Shown here: in pieces, positions 4,061 to 58,329 of the stretch | Numbering within the stretch: position 1 is the first letter of the stretch | Layout of the letters: every line of letters starts with the position of its first letter | Assembly (NCBI GenBank): GCA_031763025.1 | Contig: JASSKH010000010.1 | Span: 5,265,901-5,329,900 of the forward strand | Direction: 5' to 3' | Length of the DNA: 64,000 nucleotides | Source: Macrocystis pyrifera | Taxonomy: Eukaryota > Sar > Phaeophyceae > Laminariales > Laminariaceae | Translations under genes and position numbers: made by a program | Notes under the pieces: model-generated | What the model saw: only the letters and a program-made list of their open reading frames with translations | Told to the model about the DNA's origin: nothing | Databases searched by the model: none

Positions 4061-26766
<22,706 letters not shown>

Positions 26767-30527: not shown

Positions 30528-31170
30528 ATGGCCGCACTCAGACCAGAAGGGGGGCGTGAGACCCTTCCGTGATCCCATACCCCCTCCATCTCAATATATA
30601 CGCATATATAACGGGAGAGGCGTACAACTGCCGCGAGAGAGAAAGCGACAACAGAATACTCGCAGTTCTCCGATAAGCCAACCTTCCAACCCTGACGTAC
30701 GAACATATGACACGTACACCTTCATCAGGTTCCTGAAGGTGTCTGTGTAGGGCTGTATAAATTTCTAGGAAAATCGATATAACGAAATAATAATACTACA
30801 AATATATAAAAAAATATTTCGTTGGGGCGGGGGGGGGGGCTTGAGTGCAAAGTCCGCCCGCCACAGACCCCTACACCTTGCTCGCGTCACATTCACAGCG
30901 GGGTGCAGGTAACGGCCACATCGAAACCATCCACCATCAAAATCGGTCACCGCGCTCCTCCTCCCCCGCGTCATCCACATCCCCTCAAATCTAGAGGAGA
31001 CATTTCGCCGCCGGGAACAGGCAGGACGCTAGCACCCCCTTGCCCCCCCCCCTCCCCTCCCCAAATGAGTACCCGCCCGCCCTTCCCAAAATATGCTGTC
31101 CTCCTCCCTCCTGCCACTAGGTAGAACGAAAACCCATATATAAGAAAAAAAAAAAAAAATCCCGCCCCAC

Positions 31171-35600: not shown

Positions 35601-38600
35601 GCAGCGTTCGCGGCTGTGATTTTTCGTTTTTTTTCTCTGCGTGGGCTTTAGTCGTGACTCCCACATTACGCACTCGCATCGGACAAAATAGTTTTGTTTT
35701 TCAAGCAAACAAGAACAAATTTGATTGAAGGGACGGCCCATTGAAAGCTGGGGCAGCGATGCCTTTGCCCCTTCCAAATCGCAACAGTTCAACACTTATT
35801 CATTATGTGCTGCGTAATAATGGTCACCGCTGATTCTGACAAAATTAATCTATTTTTGCATTATGTATCGCTACTATTGTACCGGGAACTTCCTTCAACC
35901 ATTCTAACGCTCTTCGTAAATGTCGACTCTACCATACCGTAGGTCAACGTACCGCCGGTCTTCTCCGATTATCCAGCGACAAAAAAAAAACCCGTGCCTC
36001 TGATGTTAAATCTGTTTTTATGTCTTGAATCAAGTAGTAGGTACTCGTGAATTCGTACGAATTTTTGTTTATCGTCTCCTAATCTCCTCGAACAATTTAA
36101 TGAATTAATTAAACGCTAACTCATCTGTTTACTGTCTTGGAAAAATGTATTACGTACGAACTTACACGAATTCTTGCTCACCTTCCCTGAAACAAAAATA
36201 TTAAATTAATTAAGCAACACTAGCTCAGAGTTATGAATGCATGATTTTCTCCCACCCACCCATACCCTCTCGTGGTAGGAGTAGCATCATGTGATAGTTA
36301 CCGAGTGCGTCCACATGTTGACGTCCTCGTGCTGCCTGTCTGGATGGGCCAGGATGAAGCACAGGTCGCCACCGACGGCGAAGGTGTCGTGGTTCGGAGC
36401 GGCTTCGACAGCCTGGTGGAAATTTTCGAGCGGGACTCTCCCCAGCGTGCCCATGCGCACACCCTTCATCTCGCCACTACCTGTGGTGGTTCGAGATGAG
36501 CATATACAGCAGTGCACGTCCCAAAAGACCCCGTCGTTCAGAGGGGGGAAGAATGTCATAGGGATTTCTCTGGGCTGGGTAACCGATCGATCTTTTGCCC
36601 CTGTAGCTCAGTGGGTGACACCCTGACAGCATGGTACGAACGGGATACGTACGTACCAGGTAAGTCATTGGATTCTACTGTAGCTACCGTCTTGCATGTG
36701 GATGGTAAGAGTGGATAAACGCTGCACATTGTCAGATGGTAAATGGAATAATGAAAATAGAATACATATCGTGTTCGCGATAAAACCGACGCGAAACACT
36801 ATATGGAGGCGTTTTATGGAAGGGCAAGGGCGCCCCTGCAAAAGCATGCAACGGGAAGCGAGCGGTATTGTTGATAGAACTAGCTCACCGTACTACACAA
36901 AGCAGAAGCTTGTCGTATACTGGTATATCACTTCCCTTGTGATAAGAGAACACGGGGTGATACGATAAAACGCCCCCTGGGTAGAATACAAAAATCACGG
37001 GGAGATAATATAACACACTCACTGGGAAATTTAAAGCAAGTGAACGGGGGGACGCGTTCAGCAATAGGGCATGCCTCATATACAACTTTTTGACGAAAAT
37101 ATTGCTGAGTGACCGGGCTCTCCTCAAACGCAGTTTCGCTGGAAAATCACTAGTGTTGGGCCTATTATTCGTTACATACGTGGGCTATAAAACATATATA
37201 TATATATATATTCATAAATATATTACATAGCACCGGTGTAGGATCTATTCATCGACTTGTAACTTTGAGCTTTCTCAAAATCTTCTGTTTTTTCGCCGAG
37301 GCATAGAAATTTCCTCAAGGGTGGAGCCTCAGAAAATTCTCAGAAAATCTCAAAACATTTAGGCGCTATATACCCCTACCGTAGCATGCATCGCATCAGG
37401 GAGGCTGTTGAAAGAGCTCGCCGACAAGACGTATTCCCATAGGGACGCATCTCTCGGCATTTGCACTCTCCCTCCCCCTTGTCGAAAATGATGTTTTTCC
37501 CAGGGTATGTGTTATCGCCAGTGTGTACGGCATGTACGGTAGCTGCGGTGGGAAACAAAGGCTAGCCAGCGTGAACGATGCCGTACAGGGTCTCAACCGC
37601 CCCAATGTTAGGCCCCCTGTACAGACGAATTTCTTTTTATGACGACAAACATTTTTCGGCTACAGCGAGAGGGAGGCGCGGGGAGGGTGCTCTGATGTCA
37701 TGCATGGACGTAGTCGTGTGACTTTCGACCTTCGCGTCCTTACATTGCTGGAACGGAGCACGTCGGATTTTCACCGACCGGGCAAAACAATGCTTGCACC
37801 GAGCACGAAGCGCCTTGAGGTGTTGAGCGAGTCGGTCGCATGAAGGGTGGGGGGCGTGAATGTCCAAGGGAAACGAAATAAAACGCTCTGCGGTAAGGCG
37901 CGTGAACCCACAACGCAAACGGTAGTCAGCAACCAGGAATTCCAAAATGGTAATGGTTACACTCGATGCCTCGATTTTTTGGTGGCTCAACTATGCAGCC
38001 AGGAACATGTCGGTGCATTGACCGCGTACCACCAATAATAACGTCTTTTGCTCATCATTAATACTGCATTCTCCAGGTACGATGCATCGGTGAAAACGGT
38101 ATCGCTGGCAGCAGGCCTGAATCGGCTGGAGACAGGCAGCGCTGAAAGCTAGGTGTCTGCCGTCACCTTTCCTCCCTAACCCCATTCGTGACCCCTACTA
38201 AATACGAACGGTTTCGATTCAAACCAGCAGTGGATGCCCCCTTTGTTTGGTTTCGCATCCAACAGCAGCGTCCAGCGCATGCTTTACTCCGACGTGAATC
38301 GAGTACTCGTACTCTTGCATACCTCGGACAGATAATCTACAAATAGATCAGATAGATCATTTAGATCTTATCTGGCCAATATGGTATGCTGTGCAGGATC
38401 TGTATAGTGCAGATCCAACTCAGGAAACCCAGCCTAAATTACCCAGGCTATCCGGGTCTTGCCCGACGCCCGACAACTTGATAGTACAAGATCGGGAGCC
38501 AATCTTCCTAAAGCGACCTAGATCATGAAATGGAAATAGATTATCTGTAGATGATCTGTAGATGATCTATAGGTTATCTGTGAATGTATCTGTCCGGGGC

Positions 38601-40521
38601 GTGTGCTCTTGTGTTCGGTGCCAGAGGTATGTCGCGTGATGCGGAAGATGATGGAGAAACGAAACACAACTACAGAGTACGTTCGGCGTCACCCTGTTCC
38701 TTTCTCGCGTACGAGGTGTTCAGGACACACCGCCACCGTAGGTGTGCCAAACACGAAATACCGAATAGATTCACTTTCGCTCCGCTGCCTTCAGTCTGCC
38801 GACGATTTAGACAGAAGTTAAACGTTCAATAGGCGTACGTCTACTGGTGGTTTATACAGTAGACACTATCATCAGGTGTGTAACTCTACTGACCAAGTAC
38901 GCAGTCATAGATACTATTAATACTATAAATAATCCCAGTAGGCAGTTTAGTCCACTGACGGTTCATACAGTAGCTCCTATTAAAAGGCTTATTACCCTAC
39001 TGACGGTGTACCCGACAGTAGGTGTGCAAACCTACTGACAAGCAGATACCCTGACTCACCGCACCACAGTCCGGGGTCGGTGATTTTGCCGACGAAGCCC
39101 GTAGGACCGTCCGAGCGGCAGATCAACGTGTTCCCCAGCTTGTGGTCGCAGTGCACCATGCCAAGGCCGTGCATGAAACCGAGACCTTCCGTGGCATCCG
39201 CCTCCAAACTGGACACGCGTAACATACAGCAGCAGCGGGAGTGAATAGATGCTAGCCCTTGTAGTACTGTACTGCACTGTACATAAACCTAAATAGTACT
39301 CCAATTCCAGGTGTTTTGACGAGGAATCACTCTTCTTGTTCTCGTTTGGCAAGGCGAGGGGGGGGGAGGAAGGCGGCACGAGTCAGGAACTATCTGAAAT
39401 TTGAACTCGCACGTGTAAATGGGTGACGCTGTATATTATTTTAATTGTTTTCCTCGGACCGCGTGTCGTAACTTGTTTCATTCCGACTTGAATCGGACGG
39501 ACGCTTTATAACATCGCAGTGATAGCAGGCTCTCTTCTGTCACTGTGAACCGATAAAAAATGAATTTTATGTTGACACCTCAGCGAATAATGAACGCCAC
39601 AGCTCGGACGAGAAGCACGGCTCGACCGTTGACAGTCACGAGTATCGAAGACATGCAACCGTTCACGGAGAGAGAACAATGCCGCGACTCTGCGTCCACG
39701 ATCTCAAGAGGTCGGTTGAACCGATGCTGTGTCCACTTGTTTTAAACGCGTTTTCGATATTGCCAGCGCCCACATACCCCACACATCCCACCCCCCACCC
39801 CAACACAAACTTCAGGCGAAGGCAGAACGGGCCAATGTACACTTCCTCTACCTGGGCGACCGGGTGGTACAAGCGATAAACTCAAAAAAAGTACCGTTAT
39901 ACCTCAAGGCCTGAGGCGTTCCACGATAGAGGCCCACCCTTAATTTTCTGAGGCTCTTCACTTGAGGAGCTCCATACCTCACCTAAAACTGCCTTCAGCA
40001 AATATCTAATTGCACCCCGATGAATAATCCATGGCCCAAGTATACCATTACGTCATTTTTCGAAAGAAGATTGACATTCCGACGATTTTGGGTTAAGGAA
40101 CCCTGTTCTTTAGAAAACATTTCAGCAGAAATGTGCTACCTCTATCGTAGAAGGCGTCGCCAAGGCTAAATGTTTGTTTGCCTCAAGGCTGCTGTGTGCG
40201 CCACCCGTAGTCAGCGGTCTGCGTCGTTTTTTTACCGCTGTTCATTAACACCCCCGAGGCAAGAGTTCGCCGCCAAGATGTTCCTGTGCGAATACTCGTC
40301 ATCTGCACCGCGCACAGACAGTTAGTTCTGCTTGCCTGATCTGCTGCGCTAGCGTGAAGGCGATATCGCTCCTTCCCGTGGCGGCGATGAACATGTCGCA
40401 CACAGCCACCTCCATGACCAGCCCTTCCGACCCGGGCAGGTCGTTGATGCAGAATACGTCCACGATATTCTTGTGCTCCTTCATTCTGCGATGTTGGAAG
40501 CAGGGAGGGAGAGGAGAGGGA

Positions 40522-40557
<36 letters not shown>

Positions 40558-43500
40558 GGTGTACTTGTGTCATGCATGGCCGTAGCCGTGGGACAATAGA
40601 CCCTCGCATCCCTACAACGCCGGGACGGAGCGGTAGGAGAGGAGGGCGGGCGGGGGGGGGGGGGGTACTCATTTGTTGCGTGACATAGTCATTTGCCCAC
40701 TGACCACGCATCCCTTTCGAGACGGAACACCGTTCCTATTCCTAATAGAGACACCTCCAACATTTGGGCGCTCATTCCGTTGTTTCCATGTATTGCATGA
40801 AACAAGTGCTAATCGTATCCCCGTTCTGTTTGGTCGCCTGCGACCACCATCTATCTCCTAGGATAGCGATCGTTTTCTACCTGCTATCTAGTGTATCAAA
40901 CTCCTCCATGTCACAATCATCTATTTCCCTCATCTCCTCTTCAAACACATCTCGTTCCTCCTTGTATATTTCACATTCTCCTACTATATGGGTTCGCTCT
41001 CTACTGCTTTGCCACACGGGCACATCTGTGCATCTACTTCATCCTCCTCCCGGCTACTGGTATACCTCTTTCTTCTTTCTGGCAGGTCCAGGTCACCTAC
41101 AAGAAATCGCAGTTTCAGCTTTTTGGAAGTCCATTGGACCGTGCAAACACGTTTTCATTTCCTATTCCTTCCCTCAATACCCCGTATATCTCCAAGTGTT
41201 TTTCTTATTCCTCCTTGTTTCTTAGCGCTACCCTTTCCCTTCTTTCTACCCTTTCTTCTACTTCTGCCTTGTACCTCCCAAACTTCCCGGTAGACATCAC
41301 CTCTTCTTGGTTTTCCCCAATATCCTCCCATACTTTCTCAACTACGCCATCCCACCTTATTCCAGCCCGCCCTTTTGTGATTTTCTCCCATAAAGCTCTA
41401 TCAACTATGCCTTGCAACCTCATTTTGGGCACGCTCCTTACTTTATATTGCCATTTCAAGTTTCTCATGTCTCCATGTGTCTTGGGTGGGTGCATTCCCA
41501 GTTCTGCTTGAGAATCTTGGGGCTTTTTTTAGCTGCTGTCATCCGTACTGTTTCCAACTGTTTTACGAGCTTCGCGTTCCCTTCCCATACTTCTCCTGCA
41601 TACTCTAGCTTTGGTTCTATCACATACATCAGGACACATATCTTAATCCTGGTGTCAAGGTGCGAGTCTGTTAGGATCGCATCCATCTTGCTTACGTGTG
41701 CTGTCGCTTTCCTGATACTTTCGCTATATGTGTATCCCAATAGCAGTCTTTTGAGATCTCTACGCCAAGGTACGTATACTGGTCTACGATCGGCAATTCA
41801 TCTGCTCCCCACTTCCAACTGAAATTTACCGGGTTTACCTTATCTTCGTTACAAACAACTACTGCGCATTTCTTGACGTTTGCCGTCACCCTCCATTTCC
41901 TAGCGTATTCTACCGCCTTTTCTATTTGTTTCTGCGGGTGTTTCTGATATCCCCACGAAGTCATCCGCGAACATCAATTCCGACACCGTATCCTCCCCTA
42001 CGGTGACTCCCTGCCTTGCTGCTTCGACTGCTACTATCAGGTTGTTAATATATATATATATATCTTGGAATAGGTTAGTGACAACGTACATCCCTGCGCA
42101 ACTCCTTGTAAAATATCAACATACTTCGATATTTCCCCGTCCAGCATCACAGCACTTCTCGCACATTCCATAATATTTTTCATTATTCTCTACGTCTTTC
42201 CTCTGATTCCTATTGCCCACAGTTTTTTCCACGATCCATTTCTCCTTACTACTGGTGTGTCACGTAGGCTTTCTGCACATCTAGAAAGAAACAGTACATT
42301 GTTTGTCCCGCGTCTTCTCTACCTTGGATTATCTTGCCTAAGGTGTACACATGGTCTACGCAGCTACGGTTTGGCCTAAACCCTGCTTGTCCTTCGCTTA
42401 TTTTGTCTCCCTTCTCCATGATCGTTCCCATTCTGTCGTTCAAAACCTTATAAAATGTTTTTCCTACTGATGTTAGTAGCGTTATCTCTCTGTACTTCCC
42501 CGGGTCAGCCTTATCTCCTTTCTTGAATAAGTTTACTGCTACTCCTTCTCTCCACCTCCTACGTGCGTACTCGTTTTTCCATATCCAGTTGTACAGCATA
42601 ACCATCATGCTAAGCATTCCTTCTCCCCCGTACTTCATAAAAAAAATCACTATTTGGCCTGCCCCTGCTGCCTTTCTATTCTCAAGTTTAGCTACATACT
42701 TATTTACTTCTTCCCTTGTGAACCCTCTCTTTAACCCTCCCGAACCACTGTCTTCCCTTTCTGATGCATCTCCGTTCGCCTCTGCCCACGCGTTGATTTC
42801 CTTCTGGAATTCTGCTTTGAAGGTTTCGTTGGCTGTGGGTGTTCCTAGCTTACGCTAATGCTCTACTAGTACTCCCCTCTTCCCTTTCAAGCTACTAACC
42901 ATTTTACCGTTTGGCTCTCAAGGGAGCTATTCCCGTGTCTGCCTCTCCTGCTTGCTTGCCCAGTATCCCTTTTACCCCTACCCACATCTGCTTTATCCCG
43001 CCCTCAAAGTTTTGCATTAGCTTTATTTACTACGTTTTTCCACATCCCTTTCTTCTTCTCCACCATCCCTTTTACATTCTTTCTAATACAGCTATAGCAT
43101 ATTCCTCCCCTCCTGTCGTAGGTTTACTCGATGTATATATCTTGCGTGTGCCTTTCTCCATACTCGTATAGCCTCATTAGGACGAGGGGGGGGGGGGGGT
43201 ACTAATTTACACCTGCAATGCCGGGACGGAGCACGTCGGGTTTTACCGATCGGGCGTGCATTGCTTGCACCAAGCGCGAAGTGCCGTGAGATGTTGGATG
43301 AGTCGCATGAAGGGTGAGCTGCATCCTACTAAGAACCGCTTTTGAGGCAGATTTCTTACATATGGAGGACAACATCAATGGATTGATATATTTTCTGGTG
43401 TAGCCACTTCGAGAGACAGCAGCGGTGGTACTATTTAACCGCCTCGTGAGTGCCTTACCATATACACACTACGATACGATCATCCCCCTTGTGCGGAGTT

Positions 43501-46500
43501 AAGGTTCTCCCCGCACAAGAAGGATCTAACTCGACCGCTAGCCGTGGTGACCACCATAAAAAAGCAAAACGGTACCCTGGTTGTCTAGCCCACGCAGTGG
43601 GAGGCGTGTTTAACAGCGTCGTCCACAACCGACGCCAATCCAACCTGTATATATATACCAGGTATATAATATAGGAGGGGGGCGGAACTCTTTTGTTGCT
43701 TGCCTTAGTCATTTGACCGTTGACCACGCATCCCTTTCGAGACGCAGCGGATGGGGGGGGCGGGCGTATTGATTTGTTGATCGCTCGTACTCCAAATAGA
43801 CACGCATCCAACATTTGGGGCGCTCACTACTCTTTTTTCTGTATATGACACATGCACAATTTGATGCTCTAATCCCCTTCATGTTCTGCCGTCTGTGATG
43901 GAGGGGAGGGGGAGAGCGTGAGGCAAGGTACACGGGTTTCATTACTCATCCGAGTGCCCGACACACGACTCTAAAAATCAATACGTATATAAATAGTACA
44001 GTACAGCAACACCACTAGAACCGGATCACGCAGAAGTGCAAGAACGATCGACCCCACGTTCTACATCAAGAGTTCTTCTGGCACAGCACCTTTCCAATTG
44101 TTTTCCCCGGGACGCCCTGCCGCGCTAATTTCACAAGGTGGCACCTGTTTTAGCCCGGCATACAACTAATATTACCCCAAGGTCTCACATCACGTACGCC
44201 ATCAGCTCCCTGGTCAACCCCGTCGCGTTAAGCCCCTGAAAACAATAAAACAAAAAAACGGCGATAGGGGGGGGGGGGGGGAGAGTGGGTTGAATTGGGC
44301 TTCACCTGGGTAACGGTACTACAACATCGCCACGTCAACGTACTTTCTGTATGAAGCAAAGTGCGTTACGTTTTGATTTGGGATTGAAAGGTCAAAACAC
44401 CAGGTACTGGCCATACCGTACAAACGCGGGAAGAAAAATGCGTCGGAACGAAACGTTCTTGCCTAACACGACTTTAAAGAAGAAGCGACGCATGGCGCTA
44501 CGCCAGGGTCATTGCAGGTACAGACAGGTCTTGGGTAAGGGTGTCGAACAGCATGTTCGCCCTGCCCTAGCCGACAAATCCTTGAATGGGAACCGAACGC
44601 CACTTATAATGTTTTATCAAAGCGGCACAACCCTCTTATGAGTATCTCTGTCTGCGCCCCCGAGCCGTTGCATTGGCAAAACATTAAAACACTCAACCGC
44701 TGGGAACGAATCGTTGTTTATGTGAGCAGGGCGCTCTTGCCACCGTACAACCTATGCTTTATCCGGCACCGTGTCGTACCTTGGATATCGCATAGTGAGG
44801 GGGGAATCCTTGCTCAGGCATTTTTAACGCCACACAATTTATAGTTACCAGACAAGCACGGTTTTGAATGCGCGCGTCTATTGTGAGCTAGCTGCCTGTG
44901 GTACCGAGGCGTCGCGTCGGCTGAAAAAAAATAAACGGCTCAACGGTTTGGAAAATACGCGTCGCTTAGACACCCAATGCTACGTCAAACGCTGCAGCTG
45001 AGCTATCGTTCGGTGCTTGAAGGCGGACGAAGTTTCTTGCACGTTCCTTGGCGAGCGACGAACCCTGACACAAGCACAAAGCGCCAAACGAATAAAACGC
45101 TCTCGTATACATCGGCCGGCACCATATTGGACCCCCTCCTACGAATAGACACTGCTGTGTCTCTGCCTTGCGGTACCGCTTTCGCGTGGTCATTAAATGA
45201 AACACTCAAAACGGTTGAGAACGGACCCATTTTGTGGGCACACGCTAAGGTATACTTAGTATAGATGTGCACCGTTTTTTTCTGAGGTTCCTGACTTCAC
45301 CTTAAGAAGCTCCATACCCCGCCCAAAAACTGAACGTGAAAAATTCCACTGTGGCCGGAAATATAAGGATCGTTTAGACACTAACATGAATGCCAATCTG
45401 CCCATATATTTGCGTTCAGAGTGGTATGAAAGTGCAACCCGATGAGCAATCCCATGGCCTATACTGGTAGCTATACAAAACCCCCCAACGCATTTCAAAA
45501 CCAAAACGGCGTATCCCGAGGACGTTTTTTTCTCGGGTTAAGGAGGCCCGCGTCACATTTAGAAAATATTTTTAGCCAAGCTATGCTCGTAACCCTATCG
45601 CAGCGCGCGTCTGCCTGTGGTCACATGTTATCTGTAAGTAGCGCACTATGGAACACTTGCAGCAGGCTCGATGCACAACACCATAGAGGGTGCTCCTGTA
45701 ATTTTATATTATGAGGCTCCTCACTCGCTTCATGAACATAGCAATCAGGACCAAATATTGTTAGTAAAAACACCTAAATATATAGGTTTTTATGTATGCC
45801 ATGGGTCCTGTTAACTATAGACCCCCGTAACAGTACGGAGGACCACAGCAGTGATCAGGACCCATCATATACGCAAAAACCCACATATTCCGGTATTTTA
45901 CTAAGCATCTTTGGTCCTGATTGCTATGTTCTCCCGTACTGCTGCTGTAGCTCTATCTATCATCCGAAAACGACTTTGTTGTGTGGTATAAAGTGTACGC
46001 TTAAACCGACGGGCAGTCGATCCCGCGGCTCACGGGGATCTGCATCGAAACGCGTCGAAAACAAGACAAGAACGATGCTGGTGCAGCAATTTCGACCCGC
46101 GACGATGAGCGGGGGAAAGGGCTAAAGTATATCGTGATAGAAATTCAAGGCACGCACCGTTGTGCTGAAGTGGGAGAGGCGATAAGAACGTTTTTTGTGA
46201 CCCCGGATATGAGCTATGACTAGGATGAAGAGAGAAACGGAGGGCGAAGATAGTAACAGGACGAACAAAAAAAAAAAAAGAAGTAGTTCCTGAGGTGAGA
46301 AGCCGCCATCAGTGCGTAGGCGTGAACATTTTTTTTTAAATCAAAAGTGCCACCCTTCGCGTATCGTAGCGGGCGCGCCGGCCGCTGCGTGCTGTGCGTG
46401 GTCATACTTACAATCTTCGCCGTTTTTTTTCACCGCGTACTGCTTCCTCGTCCTTTTGCACAGCCCCTGGTGGACGATGCCGAACGCGCCCTTGCCGAGG

Positions 46501-49065
46501 ACGGTGCTGTTCTCGAACCGCTGCTGCACGTGGGACAGACCATTGGCGGCCAACTCTCGCGTGCACGCGCACGCGTCGCGTTGTTCCTGCATGACGATGT
46601 CGCGCAGCATGCCCGGCGTCCACCGTGCTTCCAGGTCGGCGTATCGCAGCGGTCCCGCCGACAACCCTCCTGGAATCAAGCGAGACATTGCGTCTGTCGA
46701 TGCACCGGGCTGTTAGCACGGGACACAAGGAGAGAGAGAGAGAGAGGCGGGGGGGGGAGGAGGGGAGGACAACGCATCCCTTGAAGGTGTAAGCATCATT
46801 CCGTGGCGACGCAAAGTAATACACTCAAAAATACGCATACCTAGTTTGGTTGCAACGGTCGTGACTACGTACGTATATACGTATACACAACAGCAGGGGG
46901 AATGCGCGTAGAAGGTAGGGGTCCTGCATGCCACCAAACGTTTCTGCCAACGTGGTAAAAGCGAGAGCGAAAAACCGTCCTCGAAACGATCGGCTATTTT
47001 TATGCCAGTATATGTATATATTGTCCGACCAACGGTTGCTCCTGTGCGACGATGTATTATTCGATGTACCGTTATGACCGACGCCTGCCGCCAAGAAAAT
47101 GAGCAGTAAAACGGAGAAAGTTGCGGCCAGTTTTGCCTGCCACATCTCACAAGCGAACGAACCTCGTCGGCCCAAGCGTCCGCTTCCCTCCTCTGACGCA
47201 GTAAGGCGTCCGCAAGCTGGTTTAGCCCCTTGGTGCGTTCCTAGCCCGGTCGAGACAGACAAAAGCGGCGGCGGTGGCGGCGGCGGCGGATGCGACTTTG
47301 ACGTTCCGCTGCTCGCACACAGCATAACAAATAACAGCGGATAAGGACGGTAAACGCACTGCAAATGCAGCAAGACCACCGATAGAACGTTGTTTGGCCG
47401 CTGTGTGTTGATTTATATGAATTGTTTGTGCAAAACGCCCCACGAATCACGAATGCTCCCTAAACAGCAGTGGCTCAATGCGATGTCCAGAGGGACTTCA
47501 ACTGTGCCCTGGCATGTGGTGAACTTTACCGGCACGGAATAGTATTGCTGGAAGGCGCATCACGCATCATTTCTACGTACGTACGTGCAGATAATAAATA
47601 CATACCAGTAGTATCTGGTAAATTTCAAGTTCCACAAGCAAACAGCCGTGTCGACGCGATAAAACACAGACTGCCGCACTCGTCACTACACGTATTGTGT
47701 TCCTATTTATATTTTTAAACCTTACTGTTTCCTCCGTGCCGACGAGGCCCGATGAAACGCTCCTTACTGCCTACATACCTGTTCGTCTTCCAACGCCGCA
47801 GTCTCCTTCTTCAGCAGCTCGACGATCAAATCCGAGGCAATCTGCTCCTCGGCGAGTTGTTTCTGCAACGTGGTTGAAAGTTGGTTCAAGGCGAAGGAAG
47901 GGGGTGCGGGCATTCACTTTCGACCCCAGCCCTCGCTACGTGAATGTATGGCAGGGACACACACGTTCTTGGGCACTATCAACTTGGAATTCAACTGGAA
48001 CATATTTCGGGAGTATGCATACAATACACTCTGAACCGGAATATAAACTCCGTTTTGTATTCATATCAGAGTCCAAATGGTCCTCATATTAACGGTCGGA
48101 GTGTAGAAAAGGTTTGGGTTAAGAATATCCTCAAGTTGAGAGTTAAAGTTGCACCCGACGAGCAGTGCCTTTGGCGGTGGAACCAGAAACTGATCGACAT
48201 CGAGAGGCTTGGGGGTCATATACCAGCTGCAGCACTCGTGTTCAAGACCTTGAGCTCGATTCGATTTCGGCATTCCGATGATGACCCCGATTTTGTCTCA
48301 GGCGAACAACGGTACATGGCCTGAGAAAAAGAAGCGGGGCGTATATATACATACGTAACATATTTTTTGTCCGTCCAACTTAACTTACAAGCCTGGATGC
48401 TCAACTTTCAAGATAATCCCCCGACCCACCCCCCCGTCTTGAAAGGGAGGTGCGGTCAATGGTCAAACGACTATGGCAAGCACTGAACGAGTACCCCGCC
48501 CCCCCTCTCCCGCTTTTTTCGTTGGAATGAGCTACCTGCTGCTTGGCTGCTTGTGTCGCATCACCTTGCTGAAGTAGCTCAACATGTACCGGTATACTAT
48601 TATTACTATTAGTAGTTCCTTCGAACGAGATAAGTACCAGGTACATGCTTTGGGGTTCGACGATGATCTGTGGCTGGAACGAAAGTAGCCCGGAACAGGC
48701 AAATCTTACAGTCGGTACTTCCCTCGAAAACACGTCCTCTCTTCTCCTCCCCTCTCCTCTCTCGAGTACGCAGGCATACAGCAGTACTCACGAGTGGCGT
48801 GGATGGACGGAGCAACTACTGTACAACAGCAGCACACGCGCACAGACAGTGAGTAGCTCACCGTGAGAACCACGCATCTCTTCTCGGCAGCGAGGGCGCG
48901 ACGCCGCCAGCTCCCGATGAGTTTGCCCGCTTCATGCAGGCGGCGCGTTGCCTGCTCCCGCTCCCGATGCCCTCGCTGCTCTGACTCCTTGAACTTGTTC
49001 GCGAGCCAGGCCTCGTTGACGCGGGCTCGGACTTCGTGGACCTCTTCCACTCGGCGCCCCGCGTG
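31171..49065 (-). CDS. Diverged Ser/Thr protein kinase with N-terminal coiled coil (multi-exon)
   Basis: Exons in transcript order: 49065-48862, 47862-47779, 46709-46412, [missing helix-C exon], 40485-40336, 39208-39060, 36480-36302, [probably a helix-G exon], 32816-about 32691, about 32630-31171. Motifs in order: charged coiled coil; VLGKGAFGIV glycine loop and YAVKK lysine; KEHKNIV and LVMEV; catalytic loop MVHCDHKLGNTLI; ITDPG; GTLGRVPLE; helix F HDTFAVGGDL; FLKKSISRDPLERQ near the end of the domain. Catalytic Lys, Asp (HCD), Asn and metal Asp are present, so activity is possible although HRD, DFG and APE are all altered. The tail is Ser/Gly/Ala/Asp/Asn rich. Substrate and pathway are unknown. 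The true N-terminus is unresolved. Confidence 0.8.
32040..32275. repeat. CCA trinucleotide stretch within the kinase tail exon
   Basis: Interrupted (CCA)n on the plus strand encodes Gly/Val-rich sequence in the kinase frame. Such runs often vary in length between individuals. Confidence 0.85.
32691..32816 (-). CDS. Kinase gene exon: end of kinase domain
   Basis: Acceptor 'gtcttaacgaaag', phase 0. Peptide VCEFLKKSISRDPLERQDMA, then EMTTFLRSLASSTVVG. The 'fLkksi.rdP.eRq...' pattern is the helix H-I region (usually '..R.dp..Rp'), placing it near the C-terminal end of the kinase domain. Donor TCCG|GTAATT is proposed at 32690, in phase 1. The preceding intron is 3.5 kb, and at least the helix-G part of the domain is missing between this exon and 36302. 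Confidence 0.7.
34190..34297. mobile_element. Foldback MITE family 1, copy 6
   Basis: 'attacgggggaccatagttaataggacc' ... 'ggtcctatttactatggtctcccgtaat'. Confidence 0.9.
35171..35243 (-). other. tRNA-like sequence, degenerate
   Basis: 73 nt on the minus strand starting GTCCCCGGTGGCTTGGTAGG, with a perfect T arm (GTGAG TTCGAGT CTCAC), a plausible D arm with wobble pairs and 5 of 7 acceptor pairs. The anticodon stem does not form. Best read as a decayed tRNA or the head of a tRNA-derived SINE. No anticodon is assigned. Confidence 0.4.
36302..36480 (-). CDS. Kinase gene exon: activation segment to helix F
   Basis: Acceptor 'cgaaccaccacag', donor 'cactcgGTAACT'. It starts in phase 1, completing the glycine begun by exon 39208-39060, and leaves in phase 0. 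Peptide SGEMKGVRMGTLGRVPLENF, then APNHDTFAVGGDLCFILAHP and EDVNMW. GTLGRVPLE occupies the place of GTp.Y.aPE, and HDTFAVGGDL that of the helix-F 'sDvfalGgvl'. Proline-Leu-Glu for Ala-Pro-Glu is unusual. Confidence 0.8.
36600..36645 (+). other. tRNA 5'-half-like sequence
   Basis: 'gcccctgtagctcagtgggtgacaccctgacag' looks like the acceptor 5' strand and D arm with A box of an Ala/Val-type tRNA. No T arm follows, so it is a fragment. Confidence 0.3.
37668..37860 (-). mobile_element. SINE-like poly(C)-tailed repeat (minus strand)
   Basis: On the minus strand: 'ttcatgcgaccgactcgctcaacacc', 'cggtgcaagcattgttttgcccggtcggtgaaaatccgacgtgc' and 'cgactacgtccatgcatgacatcag', then a C-rich end. Confidence 0.75.
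38500..38590. repeat. GATCTGTA minisatellite remnant
   Basis: 'ttatctgtagatgatctgtagatgatctataggttatctgtg'. Related pieces occur at 38330-38420 around 'tgtgcaggatctgtatagtgcagatcc'. Confidence 0.7.
38836..39050. repeat. CTACTGACGGTxxATACAGTAG tandem-like repeats
   Basis: Four spaced units around 'ctactgacggt.tatacagtag', ending directly beside the donor of the kinase exon at 39060. Confidence 0.65.
39060..39208 (-). CDS. Kinase gene exon: catalytic loop and DPG
   Basis: Acceptor 'gttacgcgtgtccag', donor G|GTGAGT. The first base completes Ser across the GC-AG intron. Peptide EADATEGLGFMHGLGMVHCD, then HKLGNTLICRSDGPTGFVGK and ITDPGLWC. H-x-D, K and N of the catalytic loop are kept (HCDHKLGN); Arg of HRD is Cys, and DFG is DPG. 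HRD-Arg loss is typical of non-RD kinases, which are often not controlled by activation-loop phosphorylation. It leaves in phase 1. Confidence 0.9.
40336..40485 (-). CDS. Kinase gene exon: N-lobe strands 4-5 and hinge
   Basis: Acceptor 'cttccaacatcgcag'. The donor appears to be GC type: ATCAG|GCAAGC. Peptide MKEHKNIVDVFCINDLPGSE, then GLVMEVAVCDMFIAATGRSD. 'HkNIV.v' and 'lVmE' are the usual landmarks after helix C and at the hinge. It enters needing one base (phase 2), while exon 46709-46412 leaves in phase 1, so an exon of length 3n+1 must lie between. No GT donor of equal quality gives the right phase. Confidence 0.85.
40524..40554. repeat. 31-bp poly(G) run
   Basis: Homopolymer next to a minus-strand SINE-like 3' end (40554-40640), that is, its poly(C) tail. 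It lies about 40 bp from the kinase exon acceptor and forms the pyrimidine tract on the minus strand. Confidence 0.9.
40554..40640 (-). mobile_element. SINE-like poly(C)-tailed repeat, 3' end only
   Basis: Minus strand: 'gctccgtcccggcgttgtagggatgcgagggtctattgtcccacggctacggccatgcatgacacaagtac', then C. Confidence 0.75.
40667..43180 (-). mobile_element. Degenerate, 5'-truncated non-LTR retrotransposon (LINE)
   Basis: Minus-strand reverse transcriptase pieces: 42858-42249 with ITLLTSVGKTFYKVLNDRM, GQAGFRPNRSCVDHVYTL and FLDVQKAY; then, after stops and frameshifts, a QGCTLSL block and LMFADDFVG (catalytic FADD) near 42000; thumb and C-terminal pieces to about 40870 (WKWGADELPIVDQYTYLGVE; YVIEPKLEYAGEVWE). 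No endonuclease is seen; the 5' end stops near 43180 beside a G run. The 3' end reads 'gggatgcgtggtcagtgggcaaatga...acaaatgagtac', then poly(C). It sits in a kinase-gene intron in the same orientation as the gene. It is dead by the several stops and frameshifts. Confidence 0.9.
43190..43640 (-). mobile_element. SINE-like poly(C)-tailed repeat (minus strand, long copy)
   Basis: From the C-run end at 43190, read in reverse: 'ggtgcaagcaatgcacgcccgatcggtaaaacccgacgtgc', 'caaaagcggttcttagtaggatgcagctc', 'tctctcgaagtggctacacc', 'ggtcgagttagatccttcttgtgcgg' and 'ccactgcgtgggctagacaaccagggtacc'. Same order as 25750-26265. Confidence 0.8.
43675..43830 (-). mobile_element. Truncated LINE 3' end
   Basis: Minus strand: 'cgccccaaatgttgga', 'cgaaagggatgcgtggtcaacggtcaaatgactaaggcaagcaacaaaagag', then C-rich sequence. 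Confidence 0.7.
45737..45832. mobile_element. Foldback MITE family 1, copy 7 (diverged 5' end)
   Basis: 'gcaatcaggaccaaatattgttag' ... 'gggtcctgttaactatagacccccgtaaca'. The left terminus is diverged. Confidence 0.7.
45834..45943. mobile_element. MITE-like foldback, variant ends
   Basis: 'agtacggaggaccacagcagtgatcaggacc' ... 'ggtcctgattgctatgttctcccgtact'. Same internal layout as MITE family 1, but with TIR variant GTACGGaGgaC and TGATCAGG in place of AGTAAATAGG; abuts the previous copy. Confidence 0.75.
46412..46709 (-). CDS. Kinase gene exon: domain start with glycine loop
   Basis: Acceptor 'cccgtgctaacag' (46709) fits phase 0 after exon 47862-47779; a second AG at 46694 would need phase 1. 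Donor GATT|GTAAGT. Peptide PGASTDAMSRLIPGGLSAGP, LRYADLEARWTPGMLRDIVM, then RFENSTVLGKGAFGIVHQGL and RKQYAVKKNGED. GKGAFG-x-V is the ATP-binding loop; AVKK carries the VAIK-type lysine. It leaves in phase 1. An in-frame ATG at 46688 is a possible start if the upstream exons are not used. Confidence 0.9.
47779..47862 (-). CDS. Kinase gene exon: coiled coil
   Basis: Acceptor 'caaccacgttgcag', donor 'gaacagGTATGT'. Exactly 28 codons, phase 0 at both ends: KQLAEEQIASDLIVELLKKE, then TAALEDEQ. Hydrophobic residues at heptad spacing suggest a short coiled coil or dimerisation helix. It joins in frame to both neighbours. Confidence 0.75.
48430..48510 (+). mobile_element. Truncated LINE 3' end (plus strand)
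   Basis: 'cttgaaagggaggtgcggtcaatggtcaaacgactatggcaagcactgaacgagtacccc', then C-rich sequence. In a kinase-gene intron. Confidence 0.65.
48862..49065 (-). CDS. Kinase gene exon: charged helical region
   Basis: Donor 'ctcacgGTGAGC'. Of several AGs, the acceptor at 49065 (gcaccctcag) gives 68 codons in phase 0; 49074 and 49100 are alternatives. Peptide HAGRRVEEVHEVRARVNEAW, LANKFKESEQRGHREREQAT and RRLHEAGKLIGSWRRRALAA. It is rich in Arg and Glu and almost certainly alpha-helical. It joins in phase 0 to exon 47862-47779. Confidence 0.65.
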
Positions 49066-56153: not shown

Positions 56154-57368
56154 TTATATACTATTATAGTTCCAATAACAGACAGGTTTATGCTGCTGCT
56201 GTACCTTCTTGGGCATAGTTTTAGTCGCTACGCAATTATCAAGTCATAAAAGAGTTACCAAGGTATGTGTCGTGTGCATCAACCGGTGCGCACACAACTT
56301 TCCGCGCAAACACAGCAGTAAGCAAGTACGTACGGAGTGGAGGCATACATGTGCGTATGTATACACACAGGTACGTGTGATTTTTCGGGTGCAGCCCGGG
56401 GGAGGTCTACATACACCACGAAGCGCATGGCATCTGTCAGTTATTTCGCCTGCCGCTGCTGTAGCAGCAAGCAGTGGAATCCTATATCTCTAGTAATGGG
56501 CGGAAACACAAGGAGCGTTTCGACATCGATCGTAAGAACACCAAAAGCGGTCCTTCTACAAGTATTTCCGACCAGGCAGAGTGGTATTGTATACCAGGTA
56601 CCAGATATACGTACTCTTATTACAGCAGAAAGAACGACCGACGCCATCGTTCGAATCCAAACTTCAAAAACAGATCCTTCTCCTCTGTCTGTTTGCTTCT
56701 ATACGCGTACGTGTGCAGTATACGTCGCGGCATCGCAAAAAACACCTGCAGTGCTTCCTTGCGTACTCTTGGGTCATGACCAGGTATGGACAAGGCCAAC
56801 CTTGCTTTGCGGGCGCTACCCTTTCCTGAAGGCCGGAAGGAAAGAAATCTACCGATCAACTTCGTATTTTGTACCGCCAGGCATGTCATGCGGGCACATA
56901 TATATGCATGTACCTCCACGATGTAGAAAGCAACACCCGTTTGCCCCACGCCGCGATCAGCGAACAGTCCAACGAAAAACACCTACTACATGACAACAGA
57001 AACCTCCCACAGAGCGCCAAACGTGCAAAACTGTTTGATCTAGATTGTCTGTGGCCGTATCCAAGAGTCCTGATCAACGCCTACATACTCACCGCTGACG
57101 CCAAAAAAAGAAAGAGTGCACAAGAGCATGTCTTAGAGCATGACGACATTGTGTACCAGGTACAGAGTACCGCAGACGAAAATGACGACCCAATTGGGGC
57201 ACTTACAGGGAGTACGCCCTGAACAAAAGTCACAGCGGTCGCCTACGATTACGTATCAACTTCACCGCCTTCTGTCGCTACGTGCTGTTTTCAACGAAAA
57301 ACGAACGTTACAAAAAAGGGGAACGATATTCGAAAAAAAAACTTCAAAATGCAGCGGCCAAATGCACC

Positions 57369-57478
57369 TACTACGGGGGTCCATAGTTAAGAGGCCCTAT
57401 GGTATACATAAAAACCTATATATTTAACTATTTTTACTAACAATATTTGGTCCTATTTACTATGGTCCTCCGTAATAT
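57369..57478. mobile_element. Foldback MITE family 1, copy 11
   Basis: 'tactacgggggtccatagttaagaggccc' ... 'ggtcctatttactatggtcctccgtaata'. Confidence 0.9.
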
Positions 57479-58329
57479 TTATTTGACGGTTTTCTTCAAG
57501 TTTGTGAACCTAAAACTTTCCAAAAATGTGACACCACACATAATTCACTACTCAGCAGTAGCATCCGGGCACATCCACAACTCACAATCAAATATACCGG
57601 CTGACGGTCTATTGATAGCTTTGGCCCGTCAAGGAAGGCCTCTTTAGACACAGTATGCCAGTTTTAGTGTGGGAATACCATGACGGCTGTATATGACGGC
57701 TGTATATGACGGCTGTCCGTCTAGGGGAAAGAGCGCCGTTAACCGTCGCACCATCTTTGCTCACAACAAAAAAAACGGCAAGCCGTTGGCTCCGTCGAAT
57801 TCGTTACTATTAAATATCATTAGTAGATAACTTTAAATACGATAACAGCGAGAAAATTTAGAGGATAAGCGGCGCTCGCCCTTCCCTCCCTACAACTACC
57901 ACCACGAGCGTCATCATCACCACCATCACCGCCACAACCGCCAGCATTGACAACAGCAGCAAAGCGTCGTCGTTGGCATCAAACTTGTGAACAACAAGGA
58001 GCCCAACCAGTCGGTTCCCACAGCGAGGGCGGCAGCAGCAGCGGCAGCAAAGCTAAAAACGCCATTTGAATGCCCCGAAAAACACCTCTTCCGGCAGCGA
58101 AAAGCCCACCCAGGGGACGGACATCAGATCAAACGCATCGTATTATCTTCGTGGGAAACATCTACTACTGTACAACTCTGTGACGAGTATACTTCACTAA
58201 TTCAGCAACTCCTGACGCCGAATGCGTCTAGAGTGCCTTCTGCCCACGAAAAGTATGGAGTACGTGGGATCAAGAACCGCGGTACTATGAATACTACTAA
58301 GCTAGACCTACAGTGGACCTGCTGGTGAC

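What the first reader, a model, noticed from the sequence alone, without database searches (positions are those of the whole stretch)
40667..43180. LINE and a SINE-like repeat share a 3' end finished by poly(C) instead of poly(A)
Every LINE 3' end in the window (13.57, 40.67, 43.68, 48.5 and perhaps 11.33 kb) and every SINE-like 3' end (9.75, 14.0, 14.4, 19.1-19.4, 25.7, 26.26, 37.67, 40.55, 43.19 kb) finishes with a variant of 'aatgact..g.ca.g.a..atgagtac' and then a C run, up to 49 C. Sharing of 3' ends between a SINE and its partner LINE is known; a C tail is unusual and may show how the RT primes or slips.
Basis: partly seen in the sequence, partly recalled or inferred. Interest (0 to 1): 0.8.

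Follow-up and report, generated by a model that had tools for sequence, protein, structure and literature searches.

The report
C-tailed LINE and SINE in alga
A jumping-gene pair in what is probably a brown alga, one self-sufficient and one parasitic, shares an end signal that lies inside the last codons of the bigger one's gene, carries a C-rich tail instead of the usual A-rich one, and often sits right after an earlier C run, so copies chain head to tail.

Summary
LINE and SINE share their last ~52 nt (41 of 52 alike in the consensuses; score 56 against at most 36 in 20,000 shuffles). Of 19 BLAST rows, 15 have at least 50% C in the next 25 nt and 14 a C run of 5 or more. 'Every' copy is overstated, and the C49 run precedes an element instead of ending one.

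Three further results. (1) The shared piece is not a 3' UTR but the coding end of the LINE's ORF (GCVVNGQMTKASNK-stop), leaving 3 nt, GTA, before the tail. (2) That motif ends distant LINEs whose preceding residues differ between groups: 24 of 133 proteins have it in the last 40 residues, and it occurs 0 times in the other 98,949. Its substitutions mostly keep GNN-GNN-NAY-GG codons and the SINE shares it with a broken frame, so I infer an RNA signal. (3) C runs also lie just upstream of many 5' ends, on the element's strand, so copies form same-direction chains.

One 31-nt insertion shows C arriving with the element. The genome search did not complete, so this rests on one window. The host is probably a brown alga.

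The parts
40666..43185 (-). LINE copy, 5'-truncated and frame-shifted; first match near residue 532 of a 1360-aa relative, covering its RT and C-terminal region
   Evidence: tblastn of P0153; RVT_1 in 42249-42650
40669..40671 (-). stop codon (TGA) of the LINE ORF; only GTA (40666-40668) lies between it and the C tail
   Evidence: sequence; last residue of P0153 aligns at 40672
40666..40718 (-). 3'-terminal piece shared with the SINE; encodes KGCVVSGQMTMSRNK-stop in this copy
40652..40665 (-). C14 tail of the LINE (G on + strand)
40562..40631 (-). SINE 3' fragment downstream of the LINE tail
40524..40554 (-). C31 run after that SINE fragment, longest tail in the window
43200..43646 (-). SINE copy with near-complete 5' end, upstream of the LINE; its shared 3' piece is mostly deleted
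43186..43199 (-). C14, tail of the SINE and immediate 5' flank of the LINE
43687..43744 (-). LINE 3' end, downstream half of a split copy
43749..43779 (-). 31-nt insertion inside that LINE copy: last ~13 nt of a LINE (2 mismatches) plus GCCCGCCCCCCCC, possible 3-nt ATC duplication; absent in two paralogous copies
   Evidence: alignments, coordinates
43780..43897 (-). upstream half of the same LINE copy
13150..13186 (+). very short LINE 3' end, then C9
   Evidence: (E 0.039)
13212..13576 (+). LINE 3' copy, then C19 at 13577-13595
13662..13683 (+). 22-nt SINE 3' scrap between C13 and C18
   Evidence: by eye
13702..13736 (+). 35-nt SINE 3' scrap between C18 and C20
13780..13972 (+). SINE copy, then CA and C19
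14051..14379 (+). SINE copy, then C24
19016..19064 (+). C49 upstream of a SINE; no element tail upstream of it was found
19072..19171 (+). SINE 3' copy, then C14
19186..19430 (+). three tandem ~86-nt SINE 3' units with CA/C-rich ends
25549..25716 (+). SINE copy, then C6, C7 and C16 with single-base interruptions
25760..26257 (+). SINE copy with near-complete 5' end; the GAGTA motif is repeated once; then C12
9624..9748 (+). SINE copy, then C13; C-rich tract also upstream
37692..37848 (-). SINE copy with a C-rich, not pure C, tail
11333..11397 (-). LINE 3' end with a C-rich tail and no long run
48436..48493 (+). LINE 3' end, then CCCCGCCCCCCC; C-rich tract also upstream

Best explanation
This is a LINE family with an AP-type endonuclease and a short, apparently non-coding SINE-like family that parasitises it, in what is probably a brown alga. 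The LINE RT recognises a ~50-nt RNA signal at the 3' end; in the LINE this signal is the last ~15 codons of its ORF, and the SINE carries it in a broken frame. The RNA ends GAGTAC plus a short C-rich tail. During target-primed reverse transcription a G-rich 3' end at the nicked target pairs with that tail, so insertion favours C tracts, including the tails of earlier copies, and slippage lengthens the C run. Repeated events give same-direction chains separated by C runs. Shown: 3'-end sharing, coding position of the LINE end, C-rich tails, one C-tailed insertion in a site without C, C tracts beside many 5' ends on the element's strand, and conservation of the end motif across LINE proteins. 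Inferred: RNA-level recognition, G-strand priming, slippage, mobilisation in trans.
For: Sharing: 41 of 52 nt, far above shuffles. Coding end: frame and stop against relatives P0121, P0122 and P0153. The alignment has two 1-nt gaps, so the SINE does not keep the LINE frame. Relative P0153 has endonuclease and RT domains. Motif in distant LINEs: strict form in the last 40 residues of 24 of 133 proteins, 0 times in the remaining 98,949 residues; in an 8-protein alignment the last invariant columns before the end are in this motif. With position 5 free (positions 3 and 4 held to VEGAI and VGAI) 36 of 42 matches at 10-16 residues from the end are N, Y, D or H, all NAY codons, while elsewhere in the same proteins Q, K and R lead; with strict flanks 22 of 22. 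Position 3 is V 26, E 8, G 2 of 36, all GNN. The motif spans tree branches of up to about 1 change per column. 3' flanks 65% C; 5' flanks 46% C, 10 of 19 rows at least 50% C against 2.9% of random positions, or 9 of 18 without the split copy (p 5e-10). 14 of 26 long C/G runs adjoin elements, none on the wrong strand; 6 are both the tail of one element and the 5' flank of the next. C-tailed 31-nt insertion with empty sites in two paralogues. A relative reads past its stop as MSTPSPPPSP (P0138), which would fit GAGTACC plus C-rich sequence in another genome.
Against: No clear target-site duplications: 4 of 15 copies share 6 nt or more against 12% of mismatched pairs, and one of the four is due to the tandem array. 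No RNA fold supported: no consensus structure, z -0.6 and -0.2; a GGUC/GACU hairpin keeps 91% of pairs, but shuffles do as well (476 of 500) and no pair changes on both sides. The two near-complete SINE 5' ends do not abut C: 25760 lies 12 nt after C16, 43646 has no C tract. Of 9 copies with no listed element upstream only 4 have a C-rich 5' flank, and one of these (13780) follows a short scrap. 12 of 26 long C/G runs have no element, and A and T runs are in excess too, so simple runs are common here anyway. Position 4 includes I 3 and P 1, and 6 of 42 position-5 matches are other residues, some perhaps chance. Only 24 (strict) or 38 (relaxed) of 133 proteins show the motif, many others being truncated or of other clades. 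Codons of relatives are inferred from proteins, not seen as DNA. The motif could still serve the protein.
Confidence: 0.6

Rival explanations
1. Ordinary LINE-SINE pair with an encoded or slippage-made C tail and random insertion; chains arise from later tandem duplication and recombination between C runs.
For: The 19186-19430 units are evenly spaced and look like tandem duplication. One insertion brought its C tail into a site without C. Homopolymers of all four bases are in excess in the window.
Against: Chains mix LINE and SINE and carry different truncation points. C-rich 5' flanks also occur where no earlier tail was found (9624, 19072, 48436).
Confidence: 0.25
2. Template jumping: within one insertion event the RT reaches the end of one RNA and continues on the C tail of another, producing head-to-tail chains at once.
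For: Chains have one direction and C runs between units; 22- and 35-nt scraps at 13662 and 13702 fit repeated short starts. Recalled precedent: end-to-end jumping of the R2 RT.
Against: Does not explain C tracts before units with no element found upstream (13645, 19016). Members of a chain were not dated against each other.
Confidence: 0.2
3. The C-terminal GCVVNG motif is a protein feature of the LINE protein, and the SINE match is a by-product of SINE birth from a LINE 3' fragment.
For: The motif is seen at protein level in 24 of 133 LINE proteins. A SINE born from a LINE end would carry it for a while.
Against: Substitutions V to E or G and N to Y, D or H are chemically unlike but keep the same codon bases. 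SINE copies with a frame-broken signal have spread.
Confidence: 0.25
4. C tails are assembly or sequencing artefacts.
For: Long homopolymers are error-prone in length.
Against: Runs beside elements lie on one strand, at element ends, and interrupted C-rich tails occur too.
Confidence: 0.03

Closest known systems
RTEX-N1_Ec32 with RTEX-1/RTEX-2_Ec32 of Ectocarpus (PMC12477816; section 5 part 1 and passages seen)
   Same: Abundant non-autonomous element of unknown 5' origin that shares its 3' end with LINEs of a brown alga. The hits that bear an organism name are nearly all Ectocarpus.
   Different: That element is ~600 bp, against ~450-500 nt here. The main text holds the word 'poly' 0 times and 'c-rich' 0 times, and what I read does not place the shared end in the ORF. 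Sequences could not be compared, so same family is not shown.
RTE and RTEX LINEs and their SINEs as tabulated by Ohshima 2013 (PMC3747384; passages and parts of Tables 1-3 seen)
   Same: SINE borrows the LINE 3' end; tails are often short repeats other than poly(A).
   Different: Tails listed in what I read include (A)n, (T)n, (TTG)n, (CA)n, (CAA)n, (CCAT)n and (ATT)n; no (C)n, and 'poly c' 0 times.
UnaL2 and its SINE in eel, and other 'stringent' pairs (passages of the same review; stem-loop details partly recalled)
   Same: LINE RT recognises a specific 3' signal, followed by a repeat tail prone to slippage.
   Different: There the signal is described in the 3' UTR, often as a stem-loop; here it overlaps the ORF end and no stem-loop was supported.
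Zepp of Chlorella and microsatellite-targeting LINEs such as Waldo and Mino (recalled)
   Same: Insertion into earlier tails or simple repeats, giving same-direction arrays.
   Different: Targets there are poly(A) or AC-type repeats (recalled), not C tracts.

Membership tests
APE-type LINE (non-LTR retrotransposon) | reverse transcriptase of the LINE kind | tested here: met
   RVT_1 E 2.7e-8 in the window copy; relatives match L1 ORF2p and R2 chains in the PDB
APE-type LINE (non-LTR retrotransposon) | AP endonuclease domain upstream of the RT | tested here: inconclusive
   lies outside the 5'-truncated window copy; met in relative P0153 (PF03372 E 3.4e-12, PF14529 E 3.3e-7)
RTE-X clade | RT phylogeny with clade references | not tested
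   no clade reference sequences used; suggested only by the Ectocarpus paper's table of LINE clades
SINE | short, dispersed, 5'-truncated copies with a tail | tested here: met
   lack of coding capacity was not tested separately
SINE | pol III-type head (tRNA, 5S, 7SL) | tested here: inconclusive
   no tRNA in the window, no Rfam match at gathering score, one chance-level hit near the SINE (E 0.9); a diverged head could be missed, so 'SINE-like' under strict definitions
LINE-SINE pair | 3' ends homologous beyond the tail | tested here: met
LINE-SINE pair | LINE protein mobilises the SINE in trans | not testable with these tools
   needs a retrotransposition assay
Sequence-targeted LINE (C-tract target) | empty sites are the target sequence | tested here: inconclusive
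   5' flanks C-rich in 10 of 19 rows, but the one empty site seen has no C run
Insertion by target-primed reverse transcription | target-site duplications | tested here: inconclusive
   no excess that stands out; possible ATC at one site

The most novel reading that the evidence does not exclude
A whole clade of LINEs carries its RT recognition signal inside the last codons of the ORF, with almost no 3' UTR; SINEs steal those codons as RNA; and in one lineage the poly(C) tail is both the primer-pairing end and the landing pad, so that each insertion creates the target for the next.
Probability: 0.35. Interest if true: 0.8.

Novelty: new variant of a known kind. Interest (0 to 1): 0.6.

Why it matters
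LINE-SINE pairs are known, but the recognition signal is usually placed in a 3' UTR and tails are usually A-rich or short repeats. A signal that doubles as the protein's C-terminus makes a sharp prediction (synonymous constraint in the last ~15 codons) that any genome with these LINEs can test. A C tail that is also a preferred landing site would be a self-feeding target and would explain the same-direction chains.

Tried and rejected
Whole-genome copies: the genome search on the window's assembly did not complete (16 attempts). Related DNA: no relatives in genome contigs (116 pattern matches, none confirmed; 0) or viral contigs. A shared stem-loop was looked for and not supported. Target-site duplications were not convincing. 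A tRNA or known-RNA origin of the SINE head was not found. The idea that chains end at intron polypyrimidine tracts was only touched: 4 of 8 terminal copies have a splice-acceptor-like stretch in 130 nt downstream, against 13% per 100 nt in background; of two supposed kinase exons one gave a weak Pkinase match (E 0.0078, below its cut-off) and the other nothing.

Limits of the counts. The 19 rows include both halves of one split copy and three tandem units that may be duplicates. The relaxed motif (38 of 133) was defined with N, D, Y or H at position 5 and cannot test that position; one search leaves it free, and its 6 other residues (W, E, E, F, Q, T) are reported. In one search, 33 of the 38 were used: P0148, P0161 and P0200 were dropped as likely chance, P0145 and P0196 as under 560 aa; three long branches there are unsure. 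Of 630 hits only the best 120 were listed and used; of 157. In one search the pattern allowed 4 mismatches; the reversed window gave 0 hits. One named hit is a bacterium (Ekhidna sp., P0079), which I take for algal contamination of that assembly, untested.

Print: 'non-LTR retrotransposon, poly c, tail' 0 papers; 'line, retrotransposon, poly-c tail' 2 papers, unrelated by title; further listings. I saw listings only, except PMC12477816 (section 5 part 1 and passages) and PMC3747384 (passages, parts of tables). Subscription papers and supplements were not searched.

Full report
What is there. The window is about 49% G+C. The organism-named relatives of the LINE RT are Ectocarpus (51-66% identical in the best local alignments), apart from one bacterial name; unnamed hits reach 85% over short stretches. 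So the host is probably a brown alga other than Ectocarpus. That rests on the LINE alone; no host gene was identified firmly. The LINE copy runs from 43185 to 40666 on the minus strand. It is 5'-truncated (first match near residue 532 of the 1360-residue relative P0153) and frame-shifted, so it is dead. P0153 has endonuclease and RT domains. Further LINE 3' ends lie at 13186 (weak), 13566, 43687, 48493 and 11333. SINE-like copies, ~450-500 nt when near complete, start at 9624, 13780, 14051, 19072 (with three tandem units after it), 25549, 25760, 37848, 40631 and 43646.

The shared end. With tails left out, LINE and SINE consensuses match at 41 of 52 columns from AGGGATGCG to ATGAGTA (9 mismatches, 2 single-base gaps). 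The score is 56 against a maximum of 36 in 20,000 shuffles; without the last 11 nt none of 20,000 shuffles reaches the observed score. The consensuses were made by eye from the copies aligned. Among single copies 20 of 66 LINE-SINE pairs exceed the 99.9th percentile of shuffles. The two gaps mean that the SINE does not keep the LINE's reading frame.

The shared end is coding in the LINE. Read in frame, the consensus LINE end is TCT CGA AAG GGA TGC GTG GTC AAT GGT CAA ATG ACT AAG GCA AGC AAC AAA TGA, that is SRKGCVVNGQMTKASNK-stop, followed by GTA and the C run. Relatives P0121, P0122, P0153 and P0160 end in G(C/R)VVNG(Q/L)MTKASNK. In the window copy the last residue of P0153 aligns at 40672, the stop is 40669-40671 and the C run starts at 40665. 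The 3' UTR is therefore 3 nt.

The motif reaches much further. Many LINE proteins from other, unnamed sources end in GCVVNG or a variant 10-16 residues before the ORF end, while the ~40 residues before it do not resemble one another between groups; in an alignment of eight such proteins G964, V966, V967 and G969 of P0123 are invariant and nothing between residues 945 and 963 is. In the strict form it is found in the last 40 residues of 24 of 133 proteins and nowhere in the other 98,949 residues. Many of the rest are truncated or of other LINE clades. The variants are telling. With position 5 free, 42 matches lie 10-16 residues from the end: N 22, Y 6, D 6, H 2 and six others; elsewhere in the same proteins the same pattern holds mostly Q, K and R. 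With strict flanks the 22 matches are N 16, D 4, Y 2. Position 3 is V 26, E 8, G 2 of 36; position 4 is V 29, I 3, A 3, G 1, P 1 of 37 (the other positions are held to their common letters in each test). V, E, G and A share a first-base G; N, Y, D and H share the codon form NAY. Valine-to-glutamate and asparagine-to-tyrosine are poor protein substitutions but leave those bases alone. Such changes occur on several branches of a tree in which the motif spans branches of up to about one change per column (three long branches are unsure). With the SINE, which reads GTC TAT GG at this place, this argues for an RNA signal. It is an inference: I saw no DNA of the relatives.

Tails. Of the 19 rows, 15 have at least 50% C in the 25 nt after the 3' end, 14 a run of 5 or more and 11 a run of 7 or more; one row (43826-43782) is not a true end, which makes it 15, 14 and 11 of 18. 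LINE tails often hold GCCC units; some SINE tails hold CA units. A tail of C is not among the tails listed in the parts of Ohshima's review that I read.

C tracts upstream. In the 25 nt before the 5' end the mean C is 46% (background 25%), and 10 of 19 rows are at least 50% C against 2.9% of random positions; without 43744, whose flank is the inserted tail, it is 9 of 18 (p 5e-10; rows in a chain are not independent). Of 26 C/G runs of 10 or more, 14 lie within 25 nt of an element: 12 as tails, 8 just before a 5' end, 6 of these both; two (13645, 19016) are upstream only; none adjoins an element on the wrong strand; 12 have no element. Neighbouring copies within each cluster (13.1-14.4, 19.0-19.4, 25.5-26.3, 40.5-43.9 kb) point the same way. 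Against this, only 4 of 9 copies without a listed element upstream have a C-rich flank, one of them after a short scrap, and the two near-complete 5' ends do not abut C.

A natural test. At 43749-43779 a 31-nt piece interrupts a LINE copy: 13 nt of LINE 3' end (two mismatches), then GCCCGCCCCCCCC, with a possible ATC repeat. The copies at 13.4 and 40.8 kb have the uninterrupted sequence without C. Here the C came with the insertion. It is one case and the LINE piece is short; a reversed-window control gave no match of that quality.

What I could not show. No consensus fold, no z-score of note, a 4-bp hairpin whose pairing shuffles equal, no clear target-site duplications, no known origin of the SINE head, no relatives in the other collections searched, and no genome-wide copies because the genome search did not answer in 16 attempts.

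Verdict. The pair belongs to a known kind, and a similar pair is reported in Ectocarpus. New here, as far as my searches go, are the C-rich tail, the position of the shared signal inside the LINE's last codons, its conservation across distant LINEs, and the C-linked chains.

Noticed in passing
57366-57482 and 16620, 22647, 34186, 49619, 56043, 61101, 61324; inverted copies at 12944, 24990, 45734, 61883: An interspersed ~117-nt repeat family in both orientations, perhaps a small DNA transposon.
   Followed up: no
4223-4790, 10627-10835, 14762-15283, 17752-18190: Long tandem repeat arrays (AGT/AGC triplets, GATCTGTAGAT, CTGCATGATCTATACGAT, GGTGTT types).
   Followed up: no
46410-46685 (-) and 40305-40484 (-): A possible protein kinase exon (Pkinase E 0.0078, below cut-off) and a second open piece right after a pyrimidine tract ending CAG; if both belong to one gene, the 40.5-43.9 kb chain lies in its intron in sense direction.
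   Followed up: partly
19431-19480: The tandem SINE units are followed by a splice-acceptor-like stretch (TTTTGCTGTTTCCGCAG); retroelements may favour pyrimidine tracts at intron ends. The scan did not score this one as a hit.
   Followed up: partly
31043-31071: C10, then TCCCCTCCCC and AAATGAGTACCCGCCCGCCC, perhaps a LINE end of only ~10 nt (4 mismatches to the pattern).
   Followed up: partly
25836-25861: A run of 26 T inside one SINE copy where the other near-complete copy has short T runs.
   Followed up: no
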